Shown here piece by piece: positions 31,369-46,752 of a stretch of 64,000 bases of DNA. Numbering within the stretch: the first letter of the stretch is position 1; each line of letters begins with the position of its first letter. The stretch is from positions 287,186 through 351,185 of the forward strand of contig NZ_LOCN01000007.1 of assembly GCF_001574435.1 (NCBI RefSeq). The letters run 5' to 3'. The stretch comes from Moritella sp. JT01 (GTDB lineage Bacteria > Pseudomonadota > Gammaproteobacteria > Enterobacterales > Moritellaceae). A program made the translations under genes and the position numbers. The notes beneath the pieces were generated by a model. The model was given only the letters and a program-made list of their open reading frames with translations. It was not told the DNA's origin and searched no databases.

Positions 31369-32085
31369 CTACAACCAAAGTCTTTTAATCGGCGTATCAG
31401 GTGAAAAATGATAATGGATCTGAGCTTGTAATAGCTCAGCTGTCGCAACTGCATCGGTAAGTGCATCATGCGGCGGGTATGCTGGTAAATTATAACGAGA
31501 ACGACTATTAGCTAATCGAATAGAATCCTGACGTTTACGTTTGAATAAACTGAAAAAGCCCTTGGTTTGCGCATCTTGCACATCCGCTTCTATCTGCATG
31601 GTATCAACAACAGGAAACACAATACCTTCATTAATTAAACTACGTAAATTACTATCAAAAAAATCACGTTCAATACGGCGGTAATGAACCACAACAACCT
31701 TTCCCGCCAATGCCTCTAATACAGGCTCTAGTATCCGTAACAAATCGGGTGCACCTTTTAGATCTGTATGGGTAATACCGTGAATAATAATGGAATTTTC
31801 TTGTAACTTATCCTCTGGATCAATATACCAATGCTGCGCTTGCCGACAAAAAATACGTTTCAAATTAAACGGCACCAAGCCAATGCTAATAATGCTATTC
31901 TGTTGTGAATCAAGCCCTGTCGTTTCAAAATCTAACGCAACAAAATCAATATCACTTAATTTCGTTTCATCATGATACATGCCAGTCCGGTAAAAAGACT
32001 TTAAACGTTCATCCTTACTCTGGGCTACCTTAACTTGATAAAACGCACCCCAGTTTAAAATCTCTTTATTGATAAAGTTATGCAT
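31369..32085 (-). CDS. DEDDh 3'-5' exonuclease (DnaQ/epsilon-like)
   Basis: This 238-residue protein has the DnaQ-like ExoI motif FVALDFETTGLDSQQNSI (residues about 48-65), ExoII-like VVVVHYRRIERDFFD and ExoIII-like PPHDALTDAVATAELL, giving the DEDDh catalytic set. The N-terminal 45 residues are family-specific. It is paired with the cNMP/CBS/DUF294 gene, whose stop is 9 bp upstream of this start. That pairing recurs in marine gammaproteobacteria and suggests a shared, unclear role in nucleic-acid or nucleotide turnover. Confidence 0.85.
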   Translation of the reverse strand: MHNFINKEILNWGAFYQVKVAQSKDERLKSFYRTGMYHDETKLSDIDFVALDFETTGLDSQQNSIISIGLVPFNLKRIFCRQAQHWYIDPEDKLQENSIIIHGITHTDLKGAPDLLRILEPVLEALAGKVVVVHYRRIERDFFDSNLRSLINEGIVFPVVDTMQIEADVQDAQTKGFFSLFKRKRQDSIRLANSRSRYNLPAYPPHDALTDAVATAELLQAQIHYHFSPDTPIKRLWL

Positions 32086-33983: not shown

Positions 33984-34445
33984 TTATAAATATGCCGAAG
34001 CACGTTCAATTAAAGATTCTGCTTGTCGACGTAACAGCCAGTCTGCACCCAATGTTATCGACTTTTCGGCCAGTGAACGGGCTTGCTTATAGTTGCCTTG
34101 ATAGAAATAACGCTCCCCTAAACGGAAATAAGTTTCTGGATAACGTGGCGCGATTCGGATAGCCCGCTCTAATGATGCAATAGCAGCACGATTATCACCA
34201 CTGCTTACCTGTTTGTTAGCTCGTTTCATGAGTGATAATACCGCTGCTGGTGCTTGAGCCGTATCATCTACCGGTGCTGGTTTGGGCTTAGCTTTTGGCT
34301 CAGGTTTATTTTGTTCACCCGAAACTGGAGCTGTATTATTCGTCTCTTGCACTTGCGTACCATTGGAATTGTACGTAGGTATTGTCCCGCAGGCAGTTAA
34401 AAGTAATGGCAGTGCGAACAGACACACGCGTTTTATTATTTTCAT
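33984..34445 (-). CDS. TPR lipoprotein, candidate PBP1B activator (LpoP-like)
   Basis: This 153-residue lipoprotein has signal and lipobox KRVCLFALPLLLTACGTI, with lipidated Cys at about 19. A proline- and lysine-rich linker (KPEPKAKPKPAPVDD) follows, then a C-terminal TPR-like region (AIASLERAIRIAPRYPETYF, then ERYFYQGNYKQARSLAEKS). It starts at ATG 34443-34445, 36 bp after the PBP1B stop. In Pseudomonas the TPR lipoprotein LpoP, encoded beside ponB, activates PBP1b. The same layout here suggests that role, which I infer from position and architecture only. Confidence 0.75.
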   Translation of the reverse strand: MKIIKRVCLFALPLLLTACGTIPTYNSNGTQVQETNNTAPVSGEQNKPEPKAKPKPAPVDDTAQAPAAVLSLMKRANKQVSSGDNRAAIASLERAIRIAPRYPETYFRLGERYFYQGNYKQARSLAEKSITLGADWLLRRQAESLIERASAYL

Positions 34446-34481
34446 GTTACTTCCAAAATTAATGTTTAATGACAAATAGCA

Positions 34482-36761
34482 TTATTCGACAAGATCACGG
34501 AACCACTCAATCACTCGCTTAACCCCTTGATTACAACGTAGTTCAATTTCAGGTTCATAACCACTCATAAAAGGCAGCGGGATCGAGTTAAGACAACTAC
34601 CTTGGCTACCTTGACCAGTATCACGATCAACCCAACCAACTGTAATATTCTGTGGCGGCAAGTTCTGAATCGGCAATGCTGAACGTTGACGGAAAATATC
34701 TGCCCAAACACGTAAAGCCCCACTCGAACCTGTTAAGCCAGTCGTCACATTATCATCACGCCCCATCCATACAACGGCCATCATGTCTCCAGAGAATCCA
34801 GCGAACCAACTGTCTCTTAGATCATTCGTTGTGCCCGTTTTACCGGCGACTTCAAAGTTTGGTAGCAACCATTCGAGAGCTCTCCCCGAGCCTTCATGCG
34901 TAACAGCTTGCATCGCATGACGCAGCATGTACACAGAACCAGCATCAAAGCGCTTGTCAACGGCTAACGGATAACGCTTCAACACATTACCCTTTGGATC
35001 AACAACGCTACTAATAGCTAATAAAGGTGTATAGAAACCATCCGCAGATAATGTTTGATACATTTGAGCAACGGTTAATGGTGTCATATCGACCGCACCC
35101 AACGTGATCGATGGTAAAGCCGCTATACGTTGTTCGACACCAAGACCATGGATCGTATTAATGATCTTATCTAACCCTATCTCATTGCCTAAGCGTGCTG
35201 TTGCTTGGTTATAAGACTTAGCAAGCGCTTTATATAACAATACTTCACCATGATCTTTCTTATCGTAGTTTTTAGGTGACCAAATGTCCCCATTAGGTAA
35301 ATTTAAGTTATATTCATCATCACTGATCAAGGTTGACAGATTATACTTTTCTGGTTGCTCTAATGCTGTCAGATACACTGCAGGTTTAATTAATGAGCCA
35401 ACTTGACGCTTAGCATCAATAGCACGATTAAACCCGGCATAACGCGTATTCGCGCCACCAACGATAGCAATAACAGCGCCTGTATTTGGTCGCGTTATCA
35501 CCACAGCACCTTCAAGTTTAGCGCTCAAGCCATTACGTTTATGTCGAGCAATAAATTTGGTGAGACTTGACTCAGCGCTACTTTGTACAAGTGGATCAAA
35601 ATGCGTAAAAATAGATAAACCATTCTCACTTAAATCTTCAACTTTATAGTCTCGCTGTAATTGGCGGCGAACTAAATCAAGATAAGCGGGAAATCGCTTG
35701 GTGCTACTCGCTGTTTGCTCACCCATGCCTAACGGTTGCGCTTTTGCTGCTGCGGCTAACTCACTGTCTAAACGACCTTCACGAACAGCAATATCTAACA
35801 CTAAATCACGACGTTTAAGTGCTCGTTCAGGGTTTCGCCAAGGATTGTAATAGCTTGCGCCACGTACTAATGCAACCAATAAGGCTTGCTTATCAAGTGA
35901 CAAATCCATAAGTGATGTTTTAAAGTAATACTGACTCGCCAAGCCAAAGCCATGGATAGCACGAGGGCCATCTTGACCAAGATAAATTTCGTTAATATAT
36001 CCTTCTAAAATCTTATCCTTCGAAAAATGGAATTCAAGTAAGATAGCCATCAATGCTTCTTTTGCTTTACGGCTAAAGGTACGTTCAGAACTCAGATAAT
36101 AATTTTTAACCAGCTGCTGAGTCAGTGTTGACGCGCCTTGAGAAATACCACCTTGTTTAATATTCGCCACTAATGCACGGCCGATACCACGAACAGAAAT
36201 ACCAAAATGTTCATAGAAACCATCATCTTCAACCGCCACTAACATTGCCTGTAAAGACGCTGGGACTTCAGATAACTGTACGAGCAATCTATCTTCGTTA
36301 TGCGCAGGATAAATACCACCAATGACAACAGGCTCTAATCGTAAAAGGCCGACCCCATCGTCAGCATCCAGTTTAGCAACCATGCCATCATTCAATACCA
36401 ACGAAATATTGCGTGGCGGTTCTAAGCCATCACTAAATTGGAATCCGGGCGTATAAATACGAACTTGATTACCTCGAATATTTGCTTGTCCGGGTTTAGT
36501 CGGACGAGCAACAAATTTATAACCTAATAAACCAAGTTCAGTTTTTAAATCCGCCGTCGTTAAGGCCGCGCCTTCGTATAATTCGAGCGGTCTCGCGTAA
36601 ACCGTCGATGGTACAGCCCACTTATTTTCATCAAATGTTGAACGAATAATAATATCTAAATAAATCATTACGGCTAACCCGATAACCACCGGAATCAGTA
36701 ATAACTTCCACCATAAACCACTGCGTTTTGTGTTCTTACTGCCTTTTACATTCTTATTCAC
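34482..36761 (-). CDS. mrcB: Penicillin-binding protein 1B, bifunctional
   Basis: This class A PBP of about 759 residues builds and crosslinks peptidoglycan in the periplasm. A basic cytoplasmic N-terminus and one membrane helix (LLLIPVVIGLAVMIYLDII) precede the UB2H-like region. The GT51 block follows: VEDDGFYEHFGISVRGIGRA and GGISQGASTLTQQLVKNYYL. The transpeptidase domain has GSLIKPAVYL (SxxK), KSYNQAT (SxN) and AGKTGTTNDLRDSW (KTG). The GTG at 36759-36761 is preferred because AGAGGTGCTT precedes it. The TPR lipoprotein follows in the same unit. Confidence 0.93.
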   Translation of the reverse strand: MNKNVKGSKNTKRSGLWWKLLLIPVVIGLAVMIYLDIIIRSTFDENKWAVPSTVYARPLELYEGAALTTADLKTELGLLGYKFVARPTKPGQANIRGNQVRIYTPGFQFSDGLEPPRNISLVLNDGMVAKLDADDGVGLLRLEPVVIGGIYPAHNEDRLLVQLSEVPASLQAMLVAVEDDGFYEHFGISVRGIGRALVANIKQGGISQGASTLTQQLVKNYYLSSERTFSRKAKEALMAILLEFHFSKDKILEGYINEIYLGQDGPRAIHGFGLASQYYFKTSLMDLSLDKQALLVALVRGASYYNPWRNPERALKRRDLVLDIAVREGRLDSELAAAAKAQPLGMGEQTASSTKRFPAYLDLVRRQLQRDYKVEDLSENGLSIFTHFDPLVQSSAESSLTKFIARHKRNGLSAKLEGAVVITRPNTGAVIAIVGGANTRYAGFNRAIDAKRQVGSLIKPAVYLTALEQPEKYNLSTLISDDEYNLNLPNGDIWSPKNYDKKDHGEVLLYKALAKSYNQATARLGNEIGLDKIINTIHGLGVEQRIAALPSITLGAVDMTPLTVAQMYQTLSADGFYTPLLAISSVVDPKGNVLKRYPLAVDKRFDAGSVYMLRHAMQAVTHEGSGRALEWLLPNFEVAGKTGTTNDLRDSWFAGFSGDMMAVVWMGRDDNVTTGLTGSSGALRVWADIFRQRSALPIQNLPPQNITVGWVDRDTGQGSQGSCLNSIPLPFMSGYEPEIELRCNQGVKRVIEWFRDLVE

Positions 36762-37749: not shown

Positions 37750-38973
37750 TTAAGCTTTAACAGTTTTGAATTTGTTTACTTCTTTCGCTAATACCGCAGC
37801 TTTATCAACAGGCTCAGTAAAGAATACAATCACAGTAACCGCAACTAATAATGCCGAGAAAGCAAAATAAGTATTGTTAGTTGAGCCTGTAACAATGGCT
37901 AAGAAACCACCGAAGAAACCTGATACACCCCATGCGGAATATAGGATGCCGAAGTTAGTACCGTAATTTTTTAGACCATAGTTATCCGCAGTAATTGTTG
38001 GAAATACACCGAATAATGCACCGTATGACATCGCACCAATTGCAATCGCAACCATCAATGGCATTTGCGTTGTAATTGTAGTGAAGAATGCCATGTTACC
38101 AGCTTGAAGCATGAATATTAAAGCAAGCGTATTGACTCGGCCAATCTTATCAGAGATTAAACCACCAACTACACGTCCACCCGTGTTAAAGATAGCAAGT
38201 AAAACAACACCGAATGCTATTTGGTCTGGTGTTAAACCAATTGATTTGCTGATACTACCAACAGAACCAATAAGCATGATTCCTGCAGCAGATGAAACCA
38301 TAAACATTACCCATAACTGGTAAAATTGAGGCGTTTTCAGCATTTGTTGCCAGCTAAGATTGATATCATCACTTGATGTAGCCGCTTGCACCTCTGATGG
38401 GTCTGCACTGTAATCGGCAGGAGGATCAATAAGCATAGACGCGAGTGGGATAATCGATAATATGCCAGCACCTAATATTTTGAATGTATCGTAGATACCA
38501 TAGCTTGCAATGAGGCTTGTAGATAATGGAGCGAGGTATACAGCAGCCAGTGCAAAACCACCCGCAGTTAAACCACTTACTAAACCTTTTTTATCTTTTG
38601 GCCACCATTTCATGGTACTTGGGCTAATACATGCGTATACGAAACCCATACCGGCACCAACAATACCACCAAAGGTGAATTTAAGTTCTGCTAAGGTCGT
38701 TGTATAACCTGAAGCAATAAGCCCAAGACCAACGAGAGAGATGCCAAACATGGCTACTTTTCTAGGGCCTATCTTGTCTTGTAAGATACCAGCGATAAGT
38801 AAACAAGTAGCAAATGTGAAAACGGAAATTTTGTACGGTGATACGACATCTGCTACATCCACATTTAATGCTTCTGCGAGAGGTACAGTGAAAACACCCC
38901 ACACGTATAGGATACCGATGGTTAAGTTAATGCCGATACCCGTTAATAATATTTGCAGTGGTTTATTAGTCAT
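37750..38973 (-). CDS. OFA-type MFS transporter, copy 1
   Basis: This 407-residue major facilitator has twelve transmembrane segments. It begins MTNKPLQILLTGIGINLTIG, typical of the oxalate:formate antiporter (OFA) group. The loop-2/3 motif lies around AGILQDKIGPRKVAMFG and the mid-protein motif around GGRVVGGLISDKIGR. The substrate is unknown, perhaps a monocarboxylate. The start is ATG at 38971-38973 after TTGAGGACAAA. It is a tandem paralogue of the gene at 39183-40409, with very similar sequence and matching flanks. Confidence 0.88.
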   Translation of the reverse strand: MTNKPLQILLTGIGINLTIGILYVWGVFTVPLAEALNVDVADVVSPYKISVFTFATCLLIAGILQDKIGPRKVAMFGISLVGLGLIASGYTTTLAELKFTFGGIVGAGMGFVYACISPSTMKWWPKDKKGLVSGLTAGGFALAAVYLAPLSTSLIASYGIYDTFKILGAGILSIIPLASMLIDPPADYSADPSEVQAATSSDDINLSWQQMLKTPQFYQLWVMFMVSSAAGIMLIGSVGSISKSIGLTPDQIAFGVVLLAIFNTGGRVVGGLISDKIGRVNTLALIFMLQAGNMAFFTTITTQMPLMVAIAIGAMSYGALFGVFPTITADNYGLKNYGTNFGILYSAWGVSGFFGGFLAIVTGSTNNTYFAFSALLVAVTVIVFFTEPVDKAAVLAKEVNKFKTVKA

Positions 38974-39118
38974 TTTGTCCTCAAGATCACACAATTGTGT
39001 AAACTTACACGTGTTGTGATCTAGTTAGCGAGTGACGCCCTGCTATGCAGATTTATACCCCTTAAGCAGGGTGATACAGACTTCGTTCAATCTGTCAGAT
39101 TTACAAGCTTCGCAAGGC

Positions 39119-39182: not shown

Positions 39183-40409
39183 TTAAGCTTTAGCCGCTTT
39201 TAATTTATTTTCTTCTTTCGCTAATACAGCTTCTTTATCAACTGGTTTAGTGAAGAAAGCGATGACAGTAGCAGCTACTAAAAGTGCCGCAAAAGCAAAA
39301 TAAGTATTGTTAGTTGAACCGGCAACAGTTGCTAAGAAACCACCGAAGAAACCAGATACACCCCATGAAGAATAAAGGATGCCGAAGTTAGTACCGTAAG
39401 TTTTTAGACCGTAGTTATCAGCAGTAATTGTTGGAAATACACTTAATAGTGCACCGTATGACATAGCACCAATTGCAATCGCAACCATCAGCGGCATTTG
39501 CGTTGTAATGGTAGTGAAGAATGCCATGTTACCCGCTTGAAGCATGAATACTAAAGCAAGTGTATTTACACGGCCAATCTTATCAGAAATTAAACCACCA
39601 ACGACACGGCCACCTGTATTAAAGATAGCAAGTAAAACAACACTGAATGCAATTTGCTCTGATGTCAGACCAATTGATTTACTAATGTTACCAATACTAC
39701 CAATAAGCATGATACCTGCAGCAGCTGAAACCATAAACATTACCCATAACTGGTAAAATTGAGGCGTTTTCAGCATTTGTTGCCAGCTAAGATTAATATC
39801 ATCGCTTGATGCCGCCGCTTTCGCTTCAGATGCGTCAGCAACATAACCTGCAGGTGGCGCAACAAGCAGAGACGCTAATGGGATAGCGATTACTAATAGG
39901 CCCGCACCTAAGATTTTGAATGTATCGTAGATACCGTAGTTTTCGATAAGGCTTGTAGATAATGGCGCTAGGTATACAGAAGCAAGTCCGAAACCACCCG
40001 CAGTTAAACCACTTACTAAACCTTTTTTACCTTTTGGCCACCATTTCATCGCACTTGGGCTAATACATGCGTATGAGAAACCGATACCGGCACCAACAAT
40101 ACCACCAAAGGTAAATTCGAGTTCTACTAAAGTCGTAGTGTAACCTGAAGCAATAAGACCAAGACCAACAAGAGTCACACCAAACATAGCCACTTTTTGA
40201 GGGCCAATCTTGTCTTGTAAAATACCAGCAATAAGTAAACAAGTAGCAAATGTGAAAACAGCAATTTTATACGGTGCTTTTACATCTGTAGCATCAACGT
40301 TTAACGCTTCAGCTAGAGGTACAGTGAAAACACCCCATGCGTATAAGATACCGATAGTTAAGTTAATGCCGATACCAGCTAATAGAATTTGCAGTGGTTT
40401 ATTACTCAT
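39183..40409 (-). CDS. OFA-type MFS transporter, copy 2
   Basis: This 408-residue paralogue of the neighbouring transporter begins MSNKPLQILLAGIGINLTIG. The two differ by scattered conservative changes, with most variation in the central loop (PPAGYVADASEAKAA here, PPADYSADPSEVQAA in copy 1) and at the C-terminus. The start is ATG followed upstream by GAGGCAATA. A half-site TTTTGTGATCTAG upstream resembles half a CRP box and is also seen, slightly altered, upstream of copy 1. The substrate is unknown. Confidence 0.88.
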   Translation of the reverse strand: MSNKPLQILLAGIGINLTIGILYAWGVFTVPLAEALNVDATDVKAPYKIAVFTFATCLLIAGILQDKIGPQKVAMFGVTLVGLGLIASGYTTTLVELEFTFGGIVGAGIGFSYACISPSAMKWWPKGKKGLVSGLTAGGFGLASVYLAPLSTSLIENYGIYDTFKILGAGLLVIAIPLASLLVAPPAGYVADASEAKAAASSDDINLSWQQMLKTPQFYQLWVMFMVSAAAGIMLIGSIGNISKSIGLTSEQIAFSVVLLAIFNTGGRVVGGLISDKIGRVNTLALVFMLQAGNMAFFTTITTQMPLMVAIAIGAMSYGALLSVFPTITADNYGLKTYGTNFGILYSSWGVSGFFGGFLATVAGSTNNTYFAFAALLVAATVIAFFTKPVDKEAVLAKEENKLKAAKA

Positions 40410-43817: not shown

Positions 43818-45590
43818 TTATTTCCAAAGTTCTACCAAATTAACATCTTCGCTATCAGGTTGTTTTTCACGCTCAAGAAGATTAACTTGTAAAAGCATAG
43901 GCAAATCAAAAGATGTCCCAGTAACAATACAGCTCCCTTTTGACAAATTTGGAATCAAGCTTCTCGACATGCTGTCCAAAGTGCTAATTGTATTATCTAA
44001 TAAAAATAAATCTCGATCATTGACTAACCTATGAATAAAGAAATTGTGGATTTGAGACATAATAGTGGCTGAGATGTCAGCTGGGCGTTGACTTGATAAT
44101 GTTAAATACATACCAAACTTACGACCTTCTTTGATAATTTCCTCAAACAGTTCTAATCTATAATCTTTCCAGCTTTCATTCTCACGAGTAGATTGTTGTG
44201 AAAGAACGTTATGAGCTTCATCTATAATCAAATGTACGGTGTTTCTGGGTGGATTTTCTACAGTATCTTTGTGCTGATGATAATAATGTTTTGCTATCAA
44301 AAGCGGTATAACCTTTTTCACTTCTTGATTACACTTTCGAAGTGAAATAACAGTTAATGTTTTAGCTTCTGGTTGCTGATTATCTACTGTAATTACTTTT
44401 TTTACACTTGAAAGAGAAGAATCAATACGTTTTAGTAGCGGCTGAATATGCTCAAATTGTACGTAGCCATTAACAAGATCACGAATAAGTTGTATGTTGC
44501 AACGAATCTGGAATTCATCAAATGCAGTTAATACTGGTAACCGAATACCCTCTACATCAGTTTCGAAGACCGTTTGATATCCTACACCATTAGAATTTAA
44601 ATACGTTATATTACCATTGTAGATACACTGAAAATTAGAGTTCTTAGTATTCCACGACACTGTTTTCAATTTGACTTTAAGAGCATCATTTCCAAGAGTA
44701 TCTGTAATCTCTCTTATTAAGTCTAATGTGTCAGGCTTTGGAGCTGCTGCACTAAAGATTAGTTCGTATGTTGTTTTAATGTAAGAAAGAAAACTACCAG
44801 GATTAGTAGCGAAACGTTCTCTACCTGCAATAATTCTGTTGATAAAAGGCTTTTGGGTGTTTTGAGTTGCTTGAAATAGAATACTTAGAGTTTCAGTATT
44901 CCAAAATTCGCTTTCAGCTAATGGGAAACGATCTTCTTGCATTTTAGTGTTTAGCTTGTAGACCGTTTTATACTCAGGCGAAACTAGTTGCTCGCCAGTG
45001 TATTCACCATTGAAATCTAAAAGTACAAATTGACTTTTCCCATTAATTTTATCAATTTTTGTTTCAAATAATGTAGTGAATAATTTAGTAAGTGTATTTG
45101 ATTTACCACTACCTGTATTACCGAAAATACCAATATGAGTATTGAATAATTTTTGCCATGGAAGTGAAATAGGGATTTCTTCTTTTAATAACTCACCGAT
45201 AATAAAACTTTGATCATTATTTCCTTGGCTATAAATCTCTTTCAACTTGTCTTCTTTTAGGAGATAAGCATTATCTTTAATCATAGGTAGGAACTTAATG
45301 CCTTCAAAAAACTTATCATTTTCATAATAACCAATTGGTTTTAATTCTACCTTTCTAACATAATAAACTCGTTCATCTTCCTCAATAAACCGATGTTCAT
45401 CTAAATGCTCTCCCTCAACGATACAAATGATATCTCGGAATCCACGTTGAATACTTACATATTCTCGGATTGAAATACCTTTGTATTTCTCCCCATCATA
45501 GAAGAGCGTATCTTTGTTAGATTGTTCGAATACTTTAAGTGTAACTTTTACACCACTAATAGCTATTACTTCACCTACTAATATAGACAT
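43818..45590 (-). CDS. herA: HerA-like ATPase of a SIR2-HerA defence system
   Basis: This 590-residue protein has an N-terminal beta-barrel (HAS-barrel-like, about 1-100), a Walker A motif GIFGNTGSGKSNTLTKL (about 154-170), Walker B VHLIIDEAHNVLSQQ (about 451-465) and the sensor/arginine-finger motif LSSQRPADIS (about 497-506). These are marks of the FtsK/HerA superfamily (DUF87). HerA proteins form hexamers. With SIR2 they make an anti-phage complex that depletes NAD+ and may cleave DNA. The gene starts 13 bp after the sir2 stop, with CGGAGCTTTAA upstream. It is the last gene of the minus-strand unit. Confidence 0.85.
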   Translation of the reverse strand: MSILVGEVIAISGVKVTLKVFEQSNKDTLFYDGEKYKGISIREYVSIQRGFRDIICIVEGEHLDEHRFIEEDERVYYVRKVELKPIGYYENDKFFEGIKFLPMIKDNAYLLKEDKLKEIYSQGNNDQSFIIGELLKEEIPISLPWQKLFNTHIGIFGNTGSGKSNTLTKLFTTLFETKIDKINGKSQFVLLDFNGEYTGEQLVSPEYKTVYKLNTKMQEDRFPLAESEFWNTETLSILFQATQNTQKPFINRIIAGRERFATNPGSFLSYIKTTYELIFSAAAPKPDTLDLIREITDTLGNDALKVKLKTVSWNTKNSNFQCIYNGNITYLNSNGVGYQTVFETDVEGIRLPVLTAFDEFQIRCNIQLIRDLVNGYVQFEHIQPLLKRIDSSLSSVKKVITVDNQQPEAKTLTVISLRKCNQEVKKVIPLLIAKHYYHQHKDTVENPPRNTVHLIIDEAHNVLSQQSTRENESWKDYRLELFEEIIKEGRKFGMYLTLSSQRPADISATIMSQIHNFFIHRLVNDRDLFLLDNTISTLDSMSRSLIPNLSKGSCIVTGTSFDLPMLLQVNLLEREKQPDSEDVNLVELWK

Positions 45591-45603
45591 TTAAAGCTCC
45601 GAT

Positions 45604-46752
45604 TTATTCAGCAAGAGTAAAGACATCTGTATTAAATTTAGTGAAATCCAATCTACCATCAACTTTGACTAACTTTACGTTGTTGAAATTTCCAAAATAT
45701 TCATGCATTTTATTATATTGCCCTTCACTAAAACAACTAACGTACATTATTAGCTTCTTGTTATTCAGCGAGCGTTTAACTAAGTTTCTAATATGTTCAT
45801 CAGCAAATGAGAAGCCAAAAGCAATAAGTACTGAGTTAGGCTTTTCTAACTCATAACTTAGATGCCTAAGCATCTGATAATAATGTTCCTCAAAAACGGT
45901 TTCGTGAAATTTCCATTTAGTTGGATTAACTATTGGTAGCTTATTATATTCGTCCCAAAATGCACTTGAAGTCGCATCAAATGCATCTTTCTCAGCTGGA
46001 GTAAATTCTATATTGAGGAAACTATTTCGATTAGATTCTTCATTAGTGATGACTTGCTTAAATGCAGTAAGTTTATCTTGGGCAATCGAATCAATTTTAC
46101 GATCCATGTTGTTATTGTGGTAGATGACTTCGATCCGTTCGTCTTCTTTTCTCCAATATGCCGAACCATGAAGGTGCACGATATCTATTTGAGAAATTGC
46201 AGTATGTACTTTATCAAAAATACCACTCTGAACTTGAATAGAATTGAAATTTCTAGCTTCAACGTATCTAGATTTAAAACCTTTTGAACCATCATTTATA
46301 TTGAAATCTAGCTTAGTTTCTTTGATTATTTGATCGTAAGCTTCAACAAAACAAGAATCATAATTCGTAGTAAAAACACTTAGCTTCTTATCATATCCCT
46401 TACGTTTATCTAAAATTGATGACATAGTTGTTAACAATGACTTATAGTTATCAATTACGCTTTGTCTCTTATCTTCAGGGTCTATGTTTGACGAGGTTTG
46501 TATACTTTTATAGTCACAAATCATAACTGGCTCAATGCATTCTTTGTAGTAATACATAAACAAAAGTGTCTTTAGAGCAGTCTTGTTAGTCTGATCGAAA
46601 TGTTCGGCTAACGTCTCAATAGACTCCCAATTATCCTCATCAATTTTCATATTAGTTGATAAATTAGGGAACAGTCCCGTAGAAGCTCCAGCACCTATCA
46701 AGAAGTTAATGTCTTTATCGTAAATATCGGCAATGTTAATTTTATCAATCAT
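45604..46752 (-). CDS. sir2: SIR2-family NADase of a SIR2-HerA defence system
   Basis: This 382-residue protein has a SIR2-type NAD-binding start NFLIGAGASTGLFP (about 17-30), the FTTNYDSCFVEAYD block (127-140) and the catalytic-histidine motif IVHLHGSAYW (191-200). VLIAFGFSFADEHIRNLV near the C-terminus is typical of the SIR2_2 group in bacterial defence proteins. Such proteins hydrolyse NAD+ on infection, halting the host. It has no extra fused domain. It lies directly upstream of herA, and the order sir2-herA matches known SIR2-HerA loci. Confidence 0.85.
   Translation of the reverse strand: MIDKINIADIYDKDINFLIGAGASTGLFPNLSTNMKIDEDNWESIETLAEHFDQTNKTALKTLLFMYYYKECIEPVMICDYKSIQTSSNIDPEDKRQSVIDNYKSLLTTMSSILDKRKGYDKKLSVFTTNYDSCFVEAYDQIIKETKLDFNINDGSKGFKSRYVEARNFNSIQVQSGIFDKVHTAISQIDIVHLHGSAYWRKEDERIEVIYHNNNMDRKIDSIAQDKLTAFKQVITNEESNRNSFLNIEFTPAEKDAFDATSSAFWDEYNKLPIVNPTKWKFHETVFEEHYYQMLRHLSYELEKPNSVLIAFGFSFADEHIRNLVKRSLNNKKLIMYVSCFSEGQYNKMHEYFGNFNNVKLVKVDGRLDFTKFNTDVFTLAE

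What the first reader, a model, noticed from the sequence alone, without database searches (positions are those of the whole stretch)
33984..36761. PBP1B followed by a TPR lipoprotein: candidate LpoP-type activator
A lipoprotein with a Pro/Lys linker and TPR-like C-terminus lies 36 bp after mrcB. In Pseudomonas aeruginosa the TPR lipoprotein LpoP beside ponB activates PBP1b, replacing enterobacterial LpoB. The same architecture in this lineage suggests that LpoP-type control is spread more widely.
Basis: partly seen in the sequence, partly recalled or inferred. Interest (0 to 1): 0.55.

Follow-up and report, generated by a model that had tools for sequence, protein, structure and literature searches.

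The report
Second PBP1B with its LpoP activator
A cold-sea bacterium carries, besides its ordinary E. coli-like wall-building enzyme PBP1B, a second PBP1B next to the gene for an LpoP-type outer-membrane protein that probably switches it on, and the pair seems to have been acquired from another bacterium.

Summary
On the minus strand a complete PBP1B (34482-36761) is followed after 36 bp by a 153-aa TPR lipoprotein (33984-34445). Its fold model's best match in the PDB is P. aeruginosa LpoP (35% identity over 88 residues, rmsd 1.0 A). It is a plain member of the LpoP family, and LpoP is widespread: 75 of 78 PBP1B genomes sampled across other gammaproteobacterial families carry it.

The genus is Moritella. 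Its E. coli-type PBP1B orthologue lies on another contig, and there is an LpoB-family (PF13036) gene too. The window enzyme is a second, Pseudomonas-type PBP1B. Moritella (11 of 11 genomes), most Psychromonas (12 of 15) and two Thalassotalea carry both types. Identity patterns indicate that the PBP1B-LpoP pair spread horizontally.

The acquired enzymes share two oddities: the loop that E. coli PBP1B uses to bind LpoB is 3 residues shorter (19 of 19), and the arginine that relays LpoB activation to the glycosyltransferase (E. coli R157) is missing (19 of 19, against 3 of 139 elsewhere).

Binding and activation were not tested. Which activator serves the second PBP1B is open.

The parts
34482..36761 (-). 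PBP1B of the LpoP-linked (Pseudomonas-like) type, here called PBP1B-a
   Evidence: Pfam UB2H/Transgly/Transpeptidase, TIGR02071, tree, start context
36339..36581 (-). UB2H regulatory domain of PBP1B-a (residues 63-143 of the 761-aa reading)
   Evidence: PF14814, 67.7 bits
36447..36449 (-). Codon for Pro at the position of E. coli Arg157, the residue that links UB2H to the glycosyltransferase
   Evidence: Alignments; role of R157 from passages of PMC6220978
36354..36374 (-). Shortened UB2H loop at the place of the E. coli LpoB-binding loop (E187-Q191)
   Evidence: 3 residues shorter than E. coli in 19 of 19 aligned PBP1B-a
33984..34445 (-). LpoP-type outer-membrane lipoprotein, 153 aa
   Evidence: Pfam TPR, best natural PDB sequence match 6w5q, Foldseek and VIA-align rank 1
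34389..34445 (-). Signal peptide with lipobox LTAC, lipid-anchor Cys19
   Evidence: Sequence; Cys invariant among 29 aligned LpoPs
34251..34388 (-). Disordered Pro/Lys-rich tether, 46 residues
   Evidence: Sequence; low pLDDT
33987..34250 (-). TPR domain: two TPRs and a capping helix (five helices)
   Evidence: Model pLDDT 94-98 over residues 71-153
34143..34184 (-). Most conserved block of LpoP, residues 88-101 (A...LERAIRIAPR), end of helix 2 to start of helix 3, the region that UB2H perturbs in P. aeruginosa LpoP
   Evidence: Conservation over about 90 LpoPs; NMR result from PMC7267771
32095..33972 (-). DUF294/CBS/cNMP-binding protein, 11 bp downstream, likely co-transcribed; no known part in the LpoP mechanism
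   Evidence: Pfam, spacing
31369..32085 (-). DnaQ-like 3'-5' exonuclease, next gene on the strand; not part of the LpoP mechanism
   Evidence: PRK09146

Best explanation
The gene is an LpoP: a lipoprotein anchored in the outer membrane by Cys19 (inferred from the lipobox). It reaches through the peptidoglycan on a disordered tether (predicted) and docks its two-TPR domain, by the helix 2/helix 3 end, on the UB2H domain of the adjacent PBP1B (inferred from P. aeruginosa). Docking speeds up glycan polymerisation and cross-linking, probably where the wall is stretched or thin (inferred). The pair is a two-gene unit that spread horizontally among Moritella, Psychromonas and Thalassotalea (supported by identity patterns and differing neighbourhoods). 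It sits beside, and did not replace, the resident E. coli-type PBP1B (shown), which is more likely served by another activator, the LpoB-family protein being the obvious but unproven candidate.
For: (1) LpoP identity: best natural PDB hit by sequence is P. aeruginosa LpoP 6w5q (E 8.9e-10). The fold model ranks 6w5q first in Foldseek (7 chains, ranks 1-7) and first by VIA-align (Z 16.1, rmsd 1.0, 88 residues, 35% identity). (2) Position: adjacent to PBP1B in 11 of 11 genomes of the genus. (3) Family rule: LpoP lies directly downstream of 68 of 78 UB2H-PBP1Bs from other gammaproteobacterial families. Of the other 10, one is also adjacent and 6 have LpoP elsewhere in the genome, so 75 of 78. LpoP is absent from 22 of 22 genomes with only E. 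coli-type PBP1B and from 14 of 14 without UB2H-PBP1B. The unlinked cases show the tie is not linkage alone. (4) Tree of 158 PBP1Bs: E. coli-type clade n=57 (SH-like support 0.992), 0 with LpoP; the other 101 have LpoP in 90, the window enzyme among them. (5) Dual state: two full UB2H-PBP1Bs in 11 of 11 Moritella and 12 of 15 Psychromonas; the 3 Psychromonas with one also lack LpoP. The second enzyme has HrpB nearby, as E. coli mrcB has hrpB. (6) Transfer: between Moritella and Psychromonas PBP1B-a is 68.6% identical but PBP1B-b only 48.2%, while within each genus the two diverge alike. Against Thalassotalea 73% and 44%. Neighbouring genes differ between genera. (7) Precedent: A. baumannii LpoP, a two-TPR lipoprotein next to PBP1B, activates it in vitro (passages of PMC7943195).
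Against: No interaction or activation was computed or measured. E. coli R157, whose alanine mutant strongly impairs GTase activation by LpoB, is Pro or Ser in this PBP1B clade, so activation may run by another route or be weaker. The model has five helices, P. aeruginosa LpoP six. A PF13036 protein is encoded in the genome. Two genomes of family f7 have PBP1B outside the E. coli-type clade but no LpoP found, as have 3 of 78 in the class sample. Some LpoP genomes (G017, G023) have PF13036 and only an LpoP-type PBP1B, so PF13036 is not tied to the E. coli type.
Confidence: 0.8

Rival explanations
1. LpoP is a shared activator of both PBP1Bs in the cell, and the PF13036 protein has another job.
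For: PF13036 occurs in 9 of 32 PF13036-positive class genomes that lack a UB2H-PBP1B. The Moritella protein finds no significant match to E. coli LpoB by BLASTP or to any PDB chain by phmmer, and sits in an operon with LPP20- and COG3014-like genes.
Against: Three Psychromonas genomes keep PBP1B-b and PF13036 without LpoP. 0 of 57 E. coli-type PBP1B loci have LpoP next to them and 0 of 22 E. coli-type-only genomes have it anywhere.
Confidence: 0.2
2. The LpoB-family protein activates both PBP1Bs and the TPR lipoprotein is dispensable.
For: A PF13036 gene exists in all 11 Moritella genomes.
Against: PBP1B-a has a 3-residue shorter loop at the LpoB-binding site and lacks the contact residues of E. 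coli. LpoP is present in 75 of 78 genomes with the LpoP-type PBP1B, most of them without PF13036.
Confidence: 0.06
3. The lipoprotein is an unrelated TPR lipoprotein (PilW-, NrfG- or CpoB-like) that lies beside mrcB by chance.
For: TPR domains are common. NCBIfam lists PilW first, but far below its cut-off (24 against 154 bits).
Against: LpoP 6w5q is the best natural sequence and structure match, and the pair is conserved across families.
Confidence: 0.02
4. PBP1B-a is a recent duplicate of the resident mrcB that happens to lie before a lipoprotein gene.
For: Two PBP1Bs in one genome.
Against: The two are only 43% identical and fall in different clades.
Confidence: 0.01

Closest known systems
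P. aeruginosa PBP1B (PonB)-LpoP (structure 6w5q; PMC7267771)
   Same: UB2H-PBP1B with an outer-membrane TPR lipoprotein on a disordered tether; LpoP fold at 1.0 A and 35% identity; conserved helix 2/3 region
   Different: Tether of 46 against about 127 residues; five helices against six; PBP1B lacks the R157 equivalent; a second, E. coli-type PBP1B and a PF13036 gene are present (P. aeruginosa lacks LpoB, per PMC9593243)
A. baumannii PBP1B-LpoP (PMC7943195)
   Same: Two-TPR lipoprotein encoded next to PBP1B, shown to stimulate it in vitro
   Different: Function there is measured; here inferred. The paper's passages that I saw mention no second PBP1B
E. coli PBP1B (MrcB)-LpoB
   Same: Works alike: outer-membrane lipoprotein acting on UB2H. 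The genome's other PBP1B (PBP1B-b) is the orthologue of MrcB
   Different: LpoB has another fold (per PMC7267771) and is unlinked to mrcB; the window PBP1B is outside the MrcB clade and its LpoB-binding loop is shortened

Membership tests
LpoP (activator of PBP1B) | Lipobox and lipid-anchor cysteine | tested here: met
   LTAC, Cys19; the Cys is invariant in 29 aligned LpoPs
LpoP (activator of PBP1B) | Disordered N-terminal tether | tested here: met
   Residues 20-65, pLDDT mostly 46-56; a prediction, not a measurement
LpoP (activator of PBP1B) | C-terminal tandem-TPR domain of the LpoP fold | tested here: met
   6w5q rank 1. Five helices, not six; the two-TPR A. baumannii LpoP suggests that a third TPR is not required
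LpoP (activator of PBP1B) | Encoded with a UB2H-bearing PBP1B | tested here: met
   36 bp apart; UB2H 67.7 bits
LpoP (activator of PBP1B) | Partner PBP1B belongs to the LpoP-linked group, not the E. coli type | tested here: met
   Tree
LpoP (activator of PBP1B) | Binds UB2H and stimulates GTase and TPase | not testable with these tools
   Needs purified proteins
LpoB (PF13036) | PF13036 domain in the lipoprotein of the finding | tested here: not met
   PF13036 is not among the Pfam matches up to E 1, which are nearly all TPR families; PF13036 lies on another contig
E. coli-type PBP1B (MrcB orthologue) | Within the MrcB clade, hrpB neighbourhood | tested here: not met
   Window PBP1B is outside the clade; PBP1B-b on contig C1 meets both

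The most novel reading that the evidence does not exclude
Moritella, most Psychromonas and some Thalassotalea run two separate PBP1B-activator circuits in one cell. The acquired one is allosterically rewired: it has lost the arginine that carries the activation signal from UB2H to the glycosyltransferase in E. coli, so LpoP must switch it on by another path, perhaps suited to cold or high pressure.
Probability: 0.3. Interest if true: 0.65.

Novelty: new variant of a known kind. Interest (0 to 1): 0.5.

Why it matters
Caveney et al. [quoted passage not shown] The counts here put an LpoP in nearly every sampled gammaproteobacterial genome with a PBP1B outside the E. coli-type clade. These marine genera then offer a natural experiment: two PBP1Bs with different regulatory domains, and probably two activators, in one cell. 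This makes it directly testable whether Lpo partners are exclusive, and whether the R157 relay worked out in E. coli is general.

Tried and rejected
Rejected: a generic TPR lipoprotein (6w5q outranks the other natural proteins); a recent mrcB duplicate (43% identity, different clades); and simple replacement of LpoB (PF13036 and an E. coli-type PBP1B are both present). Weak UB2H hits covering about profile 1-43 in frames of about 1,160 aa were taken as Mfd (name recalled) and not counted as PBPs. I counted the PF13036 protein as LpoB at first, then held back, because the family occurs without any UB2H-PBP1B and the Moritella protein is far from E. coli LpoB. Fisher p = 3e-19 for LpoP in 75 of 78 against 0 of 22 genomes ignores shared ancestry, and the 75 comes from two searches of different scope.

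Rows dropped: from 83 UB2H-positive class genomes I left out G000 and G006 (already held), G293 (Mfd only) and G297 and G254 (truncated frames), leaving 78. The 64 handles were picked by hand from the 217 genomes (all of f1 and f11, and 38 others). Of the full PBP places found, those of G094, G151 and G164 were not fetched, nor were two 671-aa frames with weak UB2H. Two of 159 loci (L136, L221) fell out of the tree because my motif filter missed their frame. In one search the weak matches in G012, G014 and G259 (E 9e-10 to 6e-9) were not counted as LpoP. In one search, 26 of 33 positive genomes were counted as LpoP-like; the other seven matches lie in frames of 221-947 aa.

Not done: complex prediction (the tool folds single chains) and coevolution (too few pairs). 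No fold of PBP1B was predicted.

Full report
What is there. On the minus strand a PBP1B gene (34482-36761) is followed by a 36-bp gap and a 153-aa lipoprotein gene (33984-34445), then after 11 bp a DUF294/CBS/cNMP gene and a DnaQ-like exonuclease. The PBP1B has UB2H, transglycosylase and transpeptidase domains above cut-off and both catalytic residues. The lipoprotein has a LTAC lipobox (Cys19), a 46-residue Pro/Lys-rich linker and a TPR domain. Residue +2 is Gly, which by the Lol rule (recalled) suggests the outer membrane.

What the lipoprotein is. By sequence its best natural PDB match is P. aeruginosa LpoP, 6w5q (E 8.9e-10); the matches above it are designed repeat proteins. An AlphaFold2 model from a 16-row alignment has a disordered N-terminus and five helices with pLDDT of about 94-98. 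Foldseek ranks seven chains of 6w5q first to seventh, and VIA-align ranks 6w5q first: Z 16.1, rmsd 1.0 over 88 residues, 35% identity, model 66-153 on LpoP 155-243. The Z margin over other TPR proteins is under 1, so the fold alone would not decide; sequence identity (35% against 6-27% in the other rows) and gene position do. P. aeruginosa LpoP has six helices (section read), so the last helix is missing here. The A. baumannii LpoP, described as a lipoprotein with two TPRs encoded next to PBP1B, stimulates its PBP1B in vitro (passages of PMC7943195). The most conserved stretch of about 90 LpoPs is residues 88-101 (A88 92%, L92 90%, E93 92%, R94 94%, A95 95%, R97 85%, P100 92%). It spans the end of helix 2 and the start of helix 3, where NMR shifts on UB2H binding concentrate in P. 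aeruginosa LpoP (passage of PMC7267771).

Which organism. The window lies in G000 (4.84 Mb, 42 contigs). So the genus is Moritella and f11 is Psychromonas.

The genome has two PBP1Bs. UB2H is found twice in G000: in the window and at C1:57302-57556. The second gene (PBP1B-b, L008 6976-9231, 751 aa) has HrpB (PF08482) a few genes upstream, and downstream lie reading frames that I recognise as hemL and erpA. E. coli mrcB also follows hrpB. PBP1B-b is 46% identical to E. coli MrcB and the window enzyme 41%; the two are 43% identical to each other. In a tree of 158 PBP1Bs one clade of 57 (SH-like support 0.992) holds E. coli MrcB and all 11 Moritella and 12 Psychromonas PBP1B-b, none with LpoP downstream. 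The other 101 include the window enzyme, and 90 of them have LpoP. Deeper branching among the 101 is poorly supported.

LpoP follows one PBP1B type. In a sample of 140 class-level genomes, 83 have UB2H. After the drops listed under Tried and rejected, 78 loci were read, and 68 of 78 have an LpoP-model match directly downstream. Of the other 10, searched genome-wide with alignment A1, one (G263) is adjacent after all, six carry LpoP elsewhere (G273, G246, G339, G335, G315, G219) and three show none (G240, G272, G322). In the same search LpoP is absent from 22 of 22 genomes that have only E. coli-type PBP1B and from 14 of 14 without UB2H-PBP1B; 9 of 9 positive controls were found. Two further genomes (G007, G172, family f7) have a PBP1B outside the E. 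coli-type clade and no LpoP: exceptions. PBP1B-LpoP pairs also appear in a Desulfobacterota genome (Dethiosulfatarculus; phylum recalled) and a Bdellovibrio MAG.

Dual state and transfer. Of 217 genomes of the order, 26 carry an LpoP-like protein. All 11 Moritella have two full UB2H-PBP1Bs, LpoP beside one, and PF13036 elsewhere. Of 15 Psychromonas, 12 have two PBP1Bs and LpoP, 3 (G011, G036, G175) have one and no LpoP, and 15 have PF13036. Two Thalassotalea, P. antarctica and P. marina also have both types. In 19 genomes analysed, PBP1B-a identity is 90.2% within Moritella, 70.4% within Psychromonas and 68.6% between them; PBP1B-b is 91.9%, 73.1% and 48.2%. So PBP1B-a does not evolve more slowly, yet it is far closer between the genera: the best reading is transfer after they split. 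Thalassotalea gives 73% against 44%. The neighbouring genes differ between genera. The cassette has 43-45% GC in a 39.5% GC window. Direction and donor are not resolved.

The LpoB-family gene. PF13036 matches once in G000 (E 9.3e-44), in a run of lipoprotein genes with LPP20 and COG3014-like members (the COG name is recalled). It is far from E. coli LpoB (no significant BLASTP match). The family also occurs in 9 of 32 PF13036-positive class genomes without UB2H-PBP1B. V. cholerae genetics support an LpoB-PBP1B pathway (passages of PMC4063736). Whether the Moritella protein activates PBP1B-b is open.

An oddity in the acquired enzyme. At E. coli R157, PBP1B-a of Moritella and Psychromonas has Pro (18) or Ser (1) in 19 of 19; elsewhere in the alignment 136 of 139 have Arg. 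Among named extra genomes P. antarctica keeps Arg, P. marina and Thalassotalea ND16A have Ser, and Thalassotalea 42_200_T64 has Pro. In E. coli, R157A lowers both activities and strongly impairs GTase activation by LpoB while leaving LpoB binding intact (passages of PMC6220978). The stretch holding the LpoB-binding residues E187-Q191 is 3 residues shorter than in E. coli in 19 of 19. The first point counts against assuming that the E. coli relay works here; the second argues against E. coli-style LpoB docking on PBP1B-a.

What is known and new. LpoP as PBP1B activator is known (Greene et al. 2018, not held, seen only through citing papers; Caveney et al. 2020; PMC7943195). Caveney et al. state that LpoP is not widely conserved, with a small subset of species holding both a PBP1B and an LpoP homologue. 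Searches for LpoP with PBP1b, with lipoprotein and activator, with LpoB and gammaproteobacteria, with these genera (the five papers listed of 77 hold no LpoP) and with horizontal gene transfer, and for two PBP1b with LpoB and paralog, listed no paper whose title or abstract start describes a dual PBP1B/Lpo system. Most subscription papers are not held, so this is weak evidence of novelty.

Verdict. The LpoP reading is right for this gene pair (0.8 for the mechanism). "Replacing LpoB" is wrong for this genome. The member itself is ordinary; the variant features are the second, horizontally acquired circuit and the missing relay arginine.

Noticed in passing
window 43818-46752 (-): HerA-type ATPase (PADLOC PDLC04097, E 7e-178) and a SIR2 protein (PDLC04089, E 3.5e-46) side by side: a SIR2-HerA-like anti-phage defence pair.
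   Followed up: partly
L085 (G012), L142, L146, L148: Some E. coli-type PBP1B genes have an OmpA-like lipoprotein with calcium-binding-like repeats directly downstream (named by eye), where others have LpoP; a possible further PBP1B partner in lineages without LpoP.
   Followed up: no
L260 and L278: PBP1B-LpoP pairs in Dethiosulfatarculus and in a Bdellovibrio MAG, outside Gammaproteobacteria.
   Followed up: partly
L009 4005-7739 (-): Four-gene lipoprotein cluster (LPP20, PF13036, COG3014-like, LPP20-like) also present in a genome without UB2H-PBP1B (G293), so it may have a role apart from PBP1B.
   Followed up: partly
window 37750-38994 and 39183-40409 (-): Two tandem, highly similar transporter genes, probably major facilitator family (name by eye), a likely recent duplication.
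   Followed up: no
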